Assembly: GCA_027488595.1 (NCBI GenBank)
Contig: JAIYBI010000281.1
Span: forward strand, 1-39,969
DNA from: Opitutaceae bacterium
GTDB taxonomy: Bacteria > Verrucomicrobiota > Verrucomicrobiia > Opitutales > Opitutaceae
Length of the DNA: 39,969 nucleotides
Direction of reading: 5' to 3'
A program made the position numbers and the translations under genes. This document shows, piece by piece, positions 12,498 through 24,832 of this stretch (its first letter is position 1; each line of letters opens with the position of its first letter). The notes below the pieces were generated by a model, which worked only from the letters and a program-made list of their open reading frames with translations, was not told the origin of the DNA and ran no database searches.

Positions 12498-14006
12498 TCA
12501 GAGCCGCGTCGCCGCCGGGATCCCGTAGTGCTCCACCACGCGTTTGGTCGCGGCGTCGAGGGTCGCGGCGTCGAGAATCAGACGCTGCAGGCCGCGGCCC
12601 TTCATGAACTCGAAGCGATGCACGCCATCTTTCGGCGCGGCGAGTGCAGCATTCAAATCCGCCAGCGTGGCGACGGGTTGGCCGTTCACCTTGTCCAGCA
12701 CCAGCATGAACGCGTCCTGATAACCGAGGTTGATATCATCCGGCAGCACGCCGCTGAGCACGACGAGCGCCTTGCGGCCGTCAGGCGGCTCGGCGTATTG
12801 GTAATACTGAAGCCGGAAGGGCGAGTTTTTGCGCCAATCGTCGCCCCAGCCGCGCAGGAAGGTTTGCGAGAGCGGCTGGAAAATCAGGCCGCCCGCGACC
12901 ACATACGCCGGGGGCGCGTAAAACACTTCGCGCGGCACGGTGTCATTCGAAAACTCCGCTTTGGGAATCACGTAATCCAGCGTCATCTCCTTGCCGGCGC
13001 GCAGGATTTTAATCGGCAGTTTATCGCCGGCGAAGTGCGCGCGGGTGGCGAGGTTTTCCAACTGAAGGTGTTTGTAGTCGGGGTCCAGGTAATCGCCTTC
13101 GCTATCAATCGCGAAGCCTCCGATTTCGAGAAGAACATCGCCCGCCTGCGGTCCGGCCTCGCCCTTCGCCTTGCCGGGCTTATGCACCACCGCACCACGC
13201 GGCGCTCCACTCAGACCGAGGTCGGCAACAAGCGCCGGATTGCTGCCCGGTTGCCAGGTGAAATCAAAGTAGCCCAGCCCGGCGAAACCACCCGCGCGAT
13301 ACGCCGCCAGCACACGTTGAATGAACGATGCCGGCATCACGCCGCACAAGCGACTCGTGCCGTAGGTCGTCAAACCCGCCACCCGGCCATCGCGCTCCAC
13401 GATCTCCGCCCAGCCGAGTCGGCCGCCGATGTCGGTGCCGACCTCCATGATCATTTGCGGTGAGAAGCCCATCGCGCCCTCGGAAACGATGAAGCGACTG
13501 AAATCCGCGCGGCGGCTCTCCAGATTACCCTCGCGCCAGCGCACGAGGTTGAACTCCGGTCCCGCCGGCACCGTGGTCATTAGTTCGGCCGGCTTCAGCC
13601 CGGCCCAGAACTCCGGCGCTTCGGTCGTGAGCAGCGCGAGGTTGGACTGCGCGTCCCACCACTTCACGCGCGCATCATACCAGCGGCCGCGCCCTCCTTT
13701 TTGCAGACGCACCAGAGTGTGAGTCGGAAGGTATTGAGCGGTGGTGAGAACCTCATTCGCCGCCACAACGAGACCATGCTTGCGAACCGAGAGCGTGGGA
13801 TTGTTCCAGGGTTGGAAGGCATCGTGCGCCTTGAAGGTGATCTCAACGTTCACCAGGGAGCGCGTCCAATCCGGCGCGGTGCGGAGCATGGGCTGCGCCT
13901 GTGCCGCTGCCGGCACGAATGCGATGGCGAGTGCGAGCGCGATGAGGGCAAGCGACAGGGCGCGAGCGAGGGAGCTGAGGCCGGCGAGGGAGCGAAGGGT
14001 TTTCAT
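12498..14006 (-). CDS. trypsin-like/PDZ protease homolog with degenerate catalytic triad
   Basis: Same length and domain layout as the upstream protease; signal peptide MKTLRSLAGLSSLARALSLALIALALAIAFVPAAAQA; His, Asp and Ser motifs replaced. Confidence 0.7.
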   Translation of the reverse strand: MKTLRSLAGLSSLARALSLALIALALAIAFVPAAAQAQPMLRTAPDWTRSLVNVEITFKAHDAFQPWNNPTLSVRKHGLVVAANEVLTTAQYLPTHTLVRLQKGGRGRWYDARVKWWDAQSNLALLTTEAPEFWAGLKPAELMTTVPAGPEFNLVRWREGNLESRRADFSRFIVSEGAMGFSPQMIMEVGTDIGGRLGWAEIVERDGRVAGLTTYGTSRLCGVMPASFIQRVLAAYRAGGFAGLGYFDFTWQPGSNPALVADLGLSGAPRGAVVHKPGKAKGEAGPQAGDVLLEIGGFAIDSEGDYLDPDYKHLQLENLATRAHFAGDKLPIKILRAGKEMTLDYVIPKAEFSNDTVPREVFYAPPAYVVAGGLIFQPLSQTFLRGWGDDWRKNSPFRLQYYQYAEPPDGRKALVVLSGVLPDDINLGYQDAFMLVLDKVNGQPVATLADLNAALAAPKDGVHRFEFMKGRGLQRLILDAATLDAATKRVVEHYGIPAATRL

Positions 14007-15541
14007 AGGCGTTCGGCGGAAACGATGCCGTAGGTGCGGAGGATATCGGCGTTGGCTGCGGTGGCGGCGGCGCGGTCGAGGGCGTCGAGCACACCATATT
14101 TCGGGCCCCAAAACTCGAAGCGGTGGCGTTCGCCCTTGTGCTCCAGGAGGGCGCGCTTCACGTCCTCGAGGCAGGTGATGCGCACGCCGTTGATGCGGTT
14201 GACGAGGGCCTGGCCCCGCACGCCGAAGTCGGCATTCACCGGATGGGGCAGCACGCTGGAAAGCACCACGGGCTCGGTGCGCGCGGCGTCGGGGTTTTCG
14301 ACCGGGAGGTGGTGCAGCTCATAGGCGAGTTGAGCCAGCTCGTCGCTCATACCGCCGCGACCGCCGCCGCTGACGGAATCGAGGTAGTTTGCGCTGAGCG
14401 AGGTGAAGACCAGGCCTCCATAGATAAAGTAGCGCGGCGGCTCGTCGTATTGACGCCCGTTGAGGCGGTCGCCGTCGTAGGCCTCGAGGGGCAGATCAAC
14501 GCCGAGCGGCGCGCGGTCGCGCCAGATTTTTAGCCGGAGCGTCTGCCCGGCTTGTAGTTGCTGAAAAACTACCGTGGCGGCTACCCGGTTTCCCTTGTAG
14601 AGCACGAGACTGTCGCTCCCGACCACGAAGCCGTTGGCCTCGAGCAGCACATCATCCGGTTTTAGTACCTTCTCCGCCGGGCCGCCGGCGCGGAGGGAGT
14701 CTACCCGGGCGCCGCGCCCGTCGTCGGGCAATCCAAGGAGGCGGCGGTAGGCCGGATTTTGAAGGTCGTAAAAACTCAAGCCCGCCATCGGGAAGCCGTC
14801 ATAGCGGTTATCTTTAATGTCATCTAGAAAATGCCGGATCACCTCGGGCGGGATGAAGAAGCCCGCGTTTTGCAGACCGGGTATGCCCTGAAAGGCGACG
14901 CCAACCACTTTGTCGTCCTGGATGACCGGGCCGCCGCTGTTGCCGGGGTTGATCGCAGCGTCCGTCTGCACGGCCAGCAGGGCGCGATTACCGGGGTGCG
15001 CGTAGGGCTGCACTTCGATGCGTGAAACGACGCCGCGGGTGAATGACATCTGGTCGCCGCCGGCCGGGTAACCCGCCGTGACCACGGTCGAGCGGACTTC
15101 GGGCAGCTCGCCAAACTCCAGCGGTTTTACTTCGGCCAATTCCTTCGGATCAATGAGCTCGAGCAACGCGAGGTCGCAGTCGTGACCGGCGAACACCACC
15201 CGCGCCGGAAGCAGGCGGGGATCCTGGTAACGTCGCACCAGGATTTGCTTCGCCCACGCGATGACGTGTGCGTTGGTGAGAATGCGCCCGCCCTCGATCA
15301 CGAAGCCGGTGCCGCTCGAGCGCTGCACGGGCTGGAAACGCCACGGCGCGTCGTAGACCGGCACCTGGCTGGAGGTGAGAATCTGCACGACCGCCCGCTC
15401 CGCCACGAAAGCCTCGGCTCGCGAGGCCGACACCCCGGTGCCGCCGAAGGCTAGCGCCATCACCAGACCCGCCACCACGGCGCGGACAAAGCGCCAGCCA
15501 AGGTTGTCCCACCGCGCGAGCACCCCTTTTGAGTTTTGCAT
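14003..15541 (-). CDS. trypsin-like serine protease with PDZ domain (DegP/HtrA-like)
   Basis: ILTNAHV (His), CDLALLEL (Asp), AAINPGNSGGPVIQ (Ser); ATGA overlap with the next gene. Confidence 0.85.
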   Translation of the reverse strand: MQNSKGVLARWDNLGWRFVRAVVAGLVMALAFGGTGVSASRAEAFVAERAVVQILTSSQVPVYDAPWRFQPVQRSSGTGFVIEGGRILTNAHVIAWAKQILVRRYQDPRLLPARVVFAGHDCDLALLELIDPKELAEVKPLEFGELPEVRSTVVTAGYPAGGDQMSFTRGVVSRIEVQPYAHPGNRALLAVQTDAAINPGNSGGPVIQDDKVVGVAFQGIPGLQNAGFFIPPEVIRHFLDDIKDNRYDGFPMAGLSFYDLQNPAYRRLLGLPDDGRGARVDSLRAGGPAEKVLKPDDVLLEANGFVVGSDSLVLYKGNRVAATVVFQQLQAGQTLRLKIWRDRAPLGVDLPLEAYDGDRLNGRQYDEPPRYFIYGGLVFTSLSANYLDSVSGGGRGGMSDELAQLAYELHHLPVENPDAARTEPVVLSSVLPHPVNADFGVRGQALVNRINGVRITCLEDVKRALLEHKGERHRFEFWGPKYGVLDALDRAAATAANADILRTYGIVSAERL

Positions 15542-15601
15542 TCCGTCATGTTGCAACCCACCCGCCCCCGCACTGCAACGCCCGACGCTAGCCGTCCGAA
15601 T

Positions 15602-15640
15602 AAAAAACAAGACGGGGCCGCCCGTTAGGACGACCCCGTC
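15602..15640 (-). terminator. Rho-independent terminator of the candidate ncRNA
   Basis: Minus strand GACGGGGTCG...CGGCCCCGTC (10 bp with one U-G) followed by TTGTTTTTTATT. Confidence 0.75.
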
Positions 15641-15805
15641 AGGTCCAGCTTCAACTAACACTCCTGAAGTTCGCGGCTTCAGGAATTGGATGCGGGCACA
15701 GGAGTGCCGGCGAAAGAACAGAAAGTGAGCCTCGGGTTTGCCGCCGGCGCCGGCGTTTTACCGTCGGCAGACCATCAACCAACCCAAGGGGTATGAAGCT
15801 GGGAC
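15603..15805 (-). ncRNA. candidate structured ncRNA (6S-like topology, family unassigned)
   Basis: Closing helix GTCCCAGCTTCA/TGAAGCTGGAC (11 bp, one bulge), helix GGGTTGG/CCAATTC, hairpin TCCTGAAG-ccgcgaa-CTTCAGGA, then terminator; no convincing ORF. Confidence 0.5.
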
Positions 15806-15939
15806 GCCACCCGCATGAAAAGGTTCCCGTTTTTTTAATCCGAATCCACCGGGCATTTTTGTCCGCCAACGACACCCAAGTAATTCACTATCGAAACCCG
15901 CCCCACTTTCCGTCTGTGTCGTTTCCCCGCCTCCTCCCG

Positions 15940-17157
15940 ATGCCCTCCCAGTCCCCCGACTCCGCCGCCCGCCCCGCCACCGCTCCGCGCCACCAGGATC
16001 TGGAGATCAAAGACGCGCAGGTGATTTTCGGCGCCGTCTGGCGCGACCTGGAGTCCACCTTCGGACGCGACCAGCTTCGTTTCCCCAAGGAAATCATCCT
16101 GCTCGGCGGCGCCCCTGGCTCCGGCAAGGGCACCAACACCGCCTTCATTCTCAAAGCCCGCGGCCTCACCTGCGAACCCATAGTCGTGAGCTCGCTGCTC
16201 GACTCGCCGGAGGCCCGCCGCCTGAAGGATGCCGGCCACATGGTAGGCGACCGCCAGGTCATCGGCATCCTTTTTGCCCGCCTCATCCGGCCGGAATACC
16301 GCGACGGCGTCATCCTCGACGGCTTCCCCCGCACCCAGGTGCAGGTCGAGTGCCTCAAGCTCCTGGTGGACCGGATGCACGCCCTGCGCCGCGAATTTTA
16401 TCCTACGCCGCTGCGCGCCCACTTTCGCCACCCGACCGTGCACATCATGGCGCTTTTCGTGGACGAAAAAACGTCCGTCGAGCGCCAGCTCAAACGCGGT
16501 CTCGAGATACGCAACTACAACGAAGAGGTCCGCCGCACCGGCATTGGTGAACTCCAGGAAGAGCGCGCCACCGACTACGACCTTGAACTAGCCAAGCGCC
16601 GCTACCGCGTTTTCAAGGAGCAGACGTGGGACGCCCTTCAGTCTCTCCGCGAGATCTACCACTACCACCTCGTCAACGCCCAGGGCTCCCTCGAAGAGGT
16701 CGAGCAAAACATCCTCCGCGAGCTCCAATACCAGAGCTCGCTCGAACTCGACCCCCGCACCCACGAGCGCCTGCGCGCCATCCCGGTCGCGAACGACATC
16801 ATCGTGCACGCCCGCCAGGAACTGGTGAAGCGTCTCGACGCCTATGACTACGAGCACCCCGAGCTCCTCACCCGGGTCGTGGAGTTCATCGAGCGCAAGA
16901 TCATGCCCATCATCCTGCGGCACGCGATTTCGGGGGTCGCGCTGGTGAACACCGAAGACACGTTGCTCGATGATCCGGTCGCACTGGCCATGCTCATTGA
17001 TATCTTCAGCGAGCGCGGCTTCCACGCCACCGTGGACATTCACCGTATCGAGATTCCAGATACATTTGATTCCGCCACCGGCAGGATCACCTGCCGCGTA
17101 AAAAAGGTTTTCCGGATCCAAATCCGGTTCCAAGGCTCCGAAATCCGCCGCGGTTAA
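15940..17157 (+). CDS. adenylate kinase-like nucleoside monophosphate kinase with long C-terminal extension
   Basis: EIILLGGAPGSGKGTNTAFI P-loop and DGVILDGFPRTQVQ. Confidence 0.85.
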   Translation: MPSQSPDSAARPATAPRHQDLEIKDAQVIFGAVWRDLESTFGRDQLRFPKEIILLGGAPGSGKGTNTAFILKARGLTCEPIVVSSLLDSPEARRLKDAGHMVGDRQVIGILFARLIRPEYRDGVILDGFPRTQVQVECLKLLVDRMHALRREFYPTPLRAHFRHPTVHIMALFVDEKTSVERQLKRGLEIRNYNEEVRRTGIGELQEERATDYDLELAKRRYRVFKEQTWDALQSLREIYHYHLVNAQGSLEEVEQNILRELQYQSSLELDPRTHERLRAIPVANDIIVHARQELVKRLDAYDYEHPELLTRVVEFIERKIMPIILRHAISGVALVNTEDTLLDDPVALAMLIDIFSERGFHATVDIHRIEIPDTFDSATGRITCRVKKVFRIQIRFQGSEIRRG

Positions 17158-24476: not shown

Positions 24477-24832
24477 TGGTGGAGGTGGCGGGAGTTGAAC
24501 CCGCGTCCCCCTGACCTTCGCACACAGCGCCTACCCTCATAGTGCCGTTTTAAATTCGCCGCCGACCCGCGACTGCACGCGCAATGTCGTCAACTAACCC
24601 CCGGATCGAAGATACGACGCCCACACCGCGGGTGGCTCTGGGCGTTATGTCCACTGTCGTCGATCTCATCAGCTAGTGGACGTCGCTGGGAGATCGTCAC
24701 CGCACTTAGGCGGCGAGGGGCATTTCTTCGTAGGTGCCGTTTATGTTTTTTGTGAAGGATGATTTACGCGAGGCCTTCACTCGCGGAGGGCAGCCATGCA
24801 CTCCAACCAAGGGTCGAATCCAGAACACCCCC
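24477..24832 (-). ncRNA. ssrA: transfer-messenger RNA
   Basis: 5' GGGGGUGUUCUGGAUUCGAC and 3' GCGGGUUCAACUCCCGCCACCUCCACCA; 7-bp acceptor with G3-U70; tag frame ends NGTYEEMPLAA-stop. Confidence 0.95.

What the first reader, a model, noticed from the sequence alone, without database searches (positions are those of the whole stretch)
15602..15805. Unassigned structured RNA gene upstream of the protease operon
The minus strand has an 11-bp closing helix (GTCCCAGCTTCA/TGAAGCTGGAC) about 140 nt apart, an internal helix GGGTTGG/CCAATTC, a perfect 8-bp hairpin in the 3' strand, a GC-rich apical region, and immediately afterwards a strong terminator whose U-G wobble favours the minus strand. A ~165-nt long hairpin with a small hairpin in its 3' strand recalls 6S RNA topology, but I cannot match conserved 6S sequence. 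A riboswitch or attenuator leader for the protease genes (start 15541) is the alternative.
Basis: partly seen in the sequence, partly recalled or inferred. Interest (0 to 1): 0.7.

Follow-up and report, generated by a model that had tools for sequence, protein, structure and literature searches.

The report
Stress-sigma-controlled small RNA gene
The stretch is a real, previously unlisted small-RNA gene of Opitutaceae bacteria, apparently switched on by the cell's own stress sigma factor; it is neither 6S RNA nor the leader of the protease genes.

Summary
The minus strand at 15827-15601 carries an independent small-RNA gene. It is found in about 80 of 150 sampled genomes of the family (Opitutaceae; genus of isolate IMCC26134), with essentially none outside it. 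It has no Rfam match. The genome's real 6S RNA lies on another contig. What is conserved is a covarying hairpin, an almost invariant unpaired stretch (GUUAGUUGAAGCUGGACCUG) and a terminator. In front of it, 101 of 108 distinct loci have GGAAC-N17-GTC (shuffled control 0.44), an ECF/sigmaE-type promoter. The same motif stands 42-45 bp before the start codon of one conserved ECF sigma gene in 38 of 38 family genomes, and before none of 9 paralogues examined. The gene lies divergent to an adenylate-kinase-like gene almost everywhere. The proteases follow it only in this genus. Best reading: the noncoding arm of an autoregulated ECF (sigmaE-like) stress response, acting without Hfq, probably by base pairing through the invariant stretch. 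Its relatives in mode of action are RybB/MicA/MicL and the Fusobacterium FoxI/FoxJ RNAs. Transcription and targets are untested.

The parts
15823..15827 (-). -35 element GGAAC of the ECF-type promoter
   Evidence: 101/108 distinct homologous loci have GGAAC-N17-GTC at exactly this spacing, shuffled mean 0.44; position-wise frequencies; coordinates
15794..15796 (-). predicted transcription start (about 7-9 nt after GTC); inference, not mapped
   Evidence: inferred from the promoter spacing of sigmaE-type promoters
15730..15789 (-). 5' hairpin H1 of the long form, basal helix CCTTGGGTT/AACCCGAGG; sequence variable, only this genus has it in this form
   Evidence: fold; conserved basal pairs in consensus fold of 11 congeners
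15711..15720 (-). linker UGUUCUUUCG, conserved in long-form members of several genera
15692..15711 (-). hairpin H2 (GGCACTCCTGTGCC), variable sequence with compensatory changes
   Evidence: consensus fold of 11 congeners, 4 pairs with double changes
   Evidence: 8 of 8 pairs have compensatory double changes, 92.0% of cells paired
15640..15659 (-). almost invariant single-stranded core GUUAGUUGAAGCUGGACCUG, candidate pairing (seed) region
   Evidence: alignment of 21 diverse members: AGTT and AAGCTGGAC invariant
15601..15640 (-). intrinsic terminator, stem GACGGGGUCGUCC/GGGCGGCCCCGUC plus CUUGUUUUUUA
   Evidence: 12-pair helix, 94.9% of cells paired, 7 pairs with double changes
15940..17157 (+). 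divergent adenylate-kinase-like gene (PF00406), the conserved neighbour of the RNA gene
   Evidence: 95 of 111 distinct loci have it divergent and upstream; 11 more are contig ends; Pfam
14003..15550 (-). first trypsin-like/PDZ protease gene, downstream only in this genus; not part of the RNA gene

Best explanation
The feature is an autonomous small-RNA gene. An ECF (sigmaE-like) sigma factor, which also appears to drive its own gene, would transcribe it from a GGAAC-N17-GTC promoter. The product is about 190 nt in this genus and about 90 nt in most other genera, and it ends at an intrinsic terminator. The exposed, almost invariant stretch GUUAGUUGAAGCUGGACCUG between hairpin H3 and the terminator most likely base-pairs with target mRNAs, by analogy those of envelope proteins, without Hfq. 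It would thus be the noncoding arm of this stress response. Supported computationally: conservation, structure, terminator, promoter motif and its shared use with one ECF gene. Inferred: transcription, start site, that this ECF is the one used, trans base pairing, envelope-stress role, targets. My probabilities: independent RNA gene with this promoter 0.9; driven by this particular ECF 0.75; acts by trans base pairing 0.6; targets envelope proteins 0.45.
For: 24/57 genomes searched (own included) match by DNA. A covariance model finds it in 84-86/150 family genomes, about 80 of them strongly, and in 1 of about 250 class genomes outside the family, weakly at 27.7 bits. 102 loci were found by pattern search, nearly all labelled Opitutaceae, Opitutae or Verrucomicrobia. 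Covariation: 93.8% of cells paired, 15/20 pairs with double changes, 212 double-change cells against 69.9 in shuffles. Promoter: GGAAC-N17-GTC in 101/108 distinct loci, no other spacing above 5. The same motif is 42-45 bp before the start codon of one ECF gene in 23/23 and 15/15 family orthologues, and before 0/7 and 0/2 paralogues. In IMCC26134 it also precedes a secreted FKBP-type isomerase, conserved in 3 close genomes. The ECF protein resembles AlgU, SigW and E. coli sigmaE and is followed by an anti-sigma-like gene. No conserved start codon or reading frame crosses the RNA.
Against: There is no transcript or start-site data. No convincing target was found: a 15-mer complement with up to 2 mismatches gave only scattered, mostly coding hits in 10 genomes, not more than the reversed-pattern control, and the core does not pair better than shuffles with ECF, FKBP or adk leaders. 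Hfq is not found in 7/7 genomes. The ECF gene is also present, with the motif, in family genomes that lack a detected RNA, so the link is one-way. The ECF promoter lies very near its start codon and could in part be coding sequence, although the GGA and CAT/CGT third positions stay fixed in most of these GC-rich genomes. In about 12 loci the RNA promoter overlaps a small membrane-protein reading frame. Other ECF factors with similar promoters are not excluded.
Confidence: 0.65

Rival explanations
1. The RNA is ECF-controlled but works by binding a protein through the invariant core (a sponge or scaffold), not by pairing with mRNAs.
For: About 17-20 consecutive near-invariant bases and a conserved terminator stem are more than most pairing seeds need; no conserved complementary site was found; Hfq is absent.
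Against: The core is unpaired and has no repeated protein-binding motif; seeds shared by many targets can also be invariant; genome-wide target search was limited.
Confidence: 0.15
2. It is a 5' leader, attenuator or riboswitch of the protease genes.
For: It lies directly upstream of the protease genes on the same strand in the window and most sequenced congeners.
Against: It has its own strong terminator. Other genera have an NtrC-type regulator (41 loci), other genes, or opposite-strand genes downstream. The conserved neighbour is the divergent adk-like gene. No riboswitch family matches.
Confidence: 0.05
3. It is a 6S RNA or a 6S paralogue.
For: Similar length, and a small hairpin in the 3' strand of an apparent long hairpin.
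Against: No RF00013 match here at E<=10. A true 6S is at G000:C338:1398-1577. The long closing helix is not conserved, and short-form members are about 90 nt.
Confidence: 0.01
4. It encodes a small protein rather than acting as RNA.
For: One frame of the core is open through the terminator in most loci.
Against: No conserved start codon; hairpins change length and sequence with compensatory changes.
Confidence: 0.03

Closest known systems
E. coli/Salmonella sigmaE-dependent sRNAs RybB, MicA, MicL
   Same: Small terminated RNA from a GGAAC...GTC/TC-type ECF promoter shared with the sigma gene itself. As recalled for MicL (lying in cutC), some members here have their promoter inside an upstream reading frame.
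   Different: No sequence similarity (no Rfam match); invariant region internal, not at the 5' end; family has no Hfq; targets unknown.
Fusobacterium nucleatum FoxI and FoxJ (PMC11005410)
   Same: SigmaE-dependent sRNAs outside Proteobacteria, in a bacterium without Hfq or ProQ, with -10/-35 boxes shared with rpoE; conserved likely seed stretch.
   Different: Different phylum, no cytosine-stretch seed, different neighbours; FoxJ/FoxI are experimentally shown, this one is not.
6S RNA (RF00013)
   Same: Only rough length and a superficial long hairpin.
   Different: Genome has a separate 6S gene; no model match; long duplex not conserved.

Membership tests
6S RNA | match to the RF00013 covariance model | tested here: not met
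   no match at E<=10 in window 15400-16050; the genome's own 6S is on contig C338
6S RNA | single long duplex with central bubble | tested here: not met
   closing helix not kept in congeners; consensus fold is a row of separate hairpins
ECF/sigmaE-dependent regulatory sRNA | ECF-type promoter directly in front | tested here: met
   GGAAC-N17-GTC in 101/108 loci against 0.44 expected; sequence evidence only
ECF/sigmaE-dependent regulatory sRNA | same promoter motif before the cognate, autoregulated sigma gene | tested here: met
   38/38 family orthologues at -42 to -45, paralogues 0/9; autoregulation itself not shown
ECF/sigmaE-dependent regulatory sRNA | small RNA ending at an intrinsic terminator | tested here: met
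   transcript itself not observed
ECF/sigmaE-dependent regulatory sRNA | expression depends on the sigma factor | not testable with these tools
   needs Northern blot or RNA-seq with sigma mutants
ECF/sigmaE-dependent regulatory sRNA | base pairing with envelope-protein mRNAs | tested here: inconclusive
   limited complement searches gave no conserved site
Hfq-dependent enterobacterial sRNAs (RybB/MicA/MicL families) | Hfq present | tested here: not met
   PF17209 absent in 7/7 genomes, controls positive
Hfq-dependent enterobacterial sRNAs (RybB/MicA/MicL families) | match to an Rfam sRNA family | tested here: not met
   no match in window or 17 homologous loci
cis-acting leader/riboswitch of the protease genes | conserved position before one gene family | tested here: not met
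   downstream genes differ between genera

The most novel reading that the evidence does not exclude
Opitutaceae have their own noncoding arm of an ECF stress response, unrelated in sequence to the proteobacterial and fusobacterial ones. It acts without Hfq through an almost invariant 20-nt element, possibly by binding a dedicated protein or by controlling many mRNAs with one shared site.
Probability: 0.5. Interest if true: 0.7.

Novelty: new member of a known kind. Interest (0 to 1): 0.55.

Why it matters
The paper search found no described sRNA in Opitutaceae, and an Rfam-based survey lists only 8 distinct sRNA families for the whole PVC group (PMC9029176). If confirmed, this would add a further phylum to those (Proteobacteria, Fusobacteria) in which an envelope-type ECF sigma factor controls a regulatory RNA, suggesting that this pairing arises repeatedly, and without Hfq. 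It also gives a concrete promoter motif and a named ECF gene, so the idea can be tested in a genus with a sequenced isolate (IMCC26134).

Tried and rejected
6S RNA: rejected. Protease leader or riboswitch: rejected. Small protein: no conserved start or frame. DUF1328 identity of the small membrane reading frame overlapping the promoter in some lineages: no Pfam match, so left unnamed. FkpA-like isomerase as a general regulon member: promoter found in only 3 of 23 genomes. Regulon search with the strict motif: few hits, mostly inside coding sequence, fewer than the reversed-pattern control, so uninformative beyond the ECF and isomerase genes. Target search by complement of the core: nothing conserved; core against ECF, FKBP and adk leaders: not better than shuffles. 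Literature: no paper found on sRNAs of Opitutaceae or ECF-sRNA links in Verrucomicrobia; MicL paper not held.

Full report
What was checked. The minus strand from 15815 to 15600 was folded and compared with relatives. The stretch folds to -101.5 kcal/mol, 5.2 s.d. below dinucleotide shuffles. Rfam gives nothing at this place at the gathering threshold; at E<=10 it gives only two unrelated chance-level matches far below their gathering scores, and nothing in 17 homologous loci. The same genome has a proper 6S RNA on another contig (51 bits, gathering 46.4), so the 6S idea can be put aside.

Relatives. A DNA search found the 3' part of the feature in 24 of 57 genomes, all in the same family. A covariance model of hairpin H3, core and terminator found it in 84 of 150 family genomes. 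A broader model found 86, about 80 of them with strong scores. Outside the family it is essentially absent (one weak hit of 27.7 bits among about 250 genomes). A pattern scan of GTDB genomes gave 102 loci, nearly all labelled Opitutaceae, Opitutae or Verrucomicrobia, among them the complete genome of isolate IMCC26134, which is G010 here.

Structure. Hairpin H3 and the terminator are well supported by covariation over 98 distinct sequences: 93.8% of cells paired, 15 of 20 pairs with double changes, no shuffle as good, slid controls at 45-52%. The alignment was fitted to the structure, which favours it somewhat. Between them lies the almost invariant stretch GUUAGUUGAAGCUGGACCUG. In most genera the RNA is short, about 90 nt: hairpin, core, terminator. 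In this genus it is about 190 nt, with a 5' hairpin H1, a linker UGUUCUUUCG and a hairpin H2 in front.

Promoter. Upstream of the RNA, 101 of 108 distinct loci have GGAAC, exactly 17 bases, then GTC; shuffled controls give 0.44, and other spacings give 0-5. The consensus is GGAACC-N16-gGTC-nAW, which from general knowledge is the form of ECF/sigmaE-type promoters. Its distance to the core is about 64-72 nt in most short forms and 151-185 nt in long forms. In the window the boxes are at 15827-15823 and 15805-15803.

Which sigma factor. The strict motif occurs only 0-6 times per genome, mostly within coding sequence. In IMCC26134 one hit lies just before an ECF sigma gene followed by an anti-sigma-like gene, and one before a secreted FKBP-type isomerase. 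The ECF protein is closest to AlgU, SigW and E. coli sigmaE in the PDB. Its orthologues carry GGAAC-N18-TC, the same spacing, at -42 (one at -45) in 23 of 23 RNA-bearing genomes that have the orthologue and at -42 in 15 of 15 family genomes without a detected RNA. Nine paralogues lack it, and orthologues from other families of the order lack it at that place. The isomerase has it only in three close genomes. So one apparently autoregulated ECF factor is the best candidate to drive the RNA. The RNA is an optional part of its regulon. In genomes without the RNA, the adk-like locus shows no RNA core and no such promoter at the expected place.

Surroundings. The divergent adenylate-kinase-like gene is next to the RNA in 95 of 111 distinct loci, with 11 more cut by contig ends. 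Downstream genes vary: an NtrC-type response regulator in 41 loci, the proteases in this genus, and others, some on the opposite strand. The RNA is therefore an independent unit. In about 12 loci the promoter lies inside a small two-helix membrane-protein reading frame without a Pfam name.

Mechanism. Hfq is not found in seven of seven genomes. The exposed invariant core suggests base pairing, but a complement search with up to two mismatches in ten genomes gave no conserved site, and the core does not pair with ECF, isomerase or adk leaders better than shuffles. A genome-wide, annotation-based target prediction could not be run. The closest working parallels are RybB, MicA and MicL in enterobacteria, and FoxI/FoxJ in Fusobacterium, which also lacks Hfq and ProQ (PMC11005410). 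No Rfam family, theirs included, matches this RNA; the resemblance is one of mode of action.

Verdict. The interpretation needs correction: not 6S, not a protease leader, but an Opitutaceae-specific small RNA that appears to be ECF-controlled. Transcription, sigma dependence and targets remain to be shown by experiment.

Noticed in passing
window 24477-24832 (-): tmRNA gene with tag peptide GTYEEMPLAA.
   Followed up: no
window 15899-15881 (-): Block GGTTTCGATAGTGAATT between the RNA promoter and the adk-like gene is well conserved in congeners; possibly the promoter or leader of the divergent adk-like gene.
   Followed up: no
window 12498-14111 (-): Second protease-like protein matches Trypsin_2 only weakly (15 bits, cut-off 27.6) but keeps a PDZ_3 domain; it may be a degenerate, non-catalytic partner of the first protease.
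   Followed up: no
L040, L048, L112, L121, L139 and others: In about 12 loci the RNA's promoter is embedded in a small two-helix membrane-protein reading frame (e.g. MLNWAITFLLLSLVSIFFTVVGTAGEIASLLARLASASFLIAAVAAFVWHFKHRHRRPGAH) with no Pfam match.
   Followed up: partly
L089 (G018:C1:4687100-4687179): A second, weaker copy of the RNA core in one genome (44 bits) without the ECF promoter and without a U-run; perhaps a decayed duplicate.
   Followed up: partly
G010:C1:2580559-2580586 (L205): The same promoter motif stands before a secreted FKBP-type isomerase in three close genomes, as recalled for fkpA in the E. coli sigmaE regulon.
   Followed up: partly
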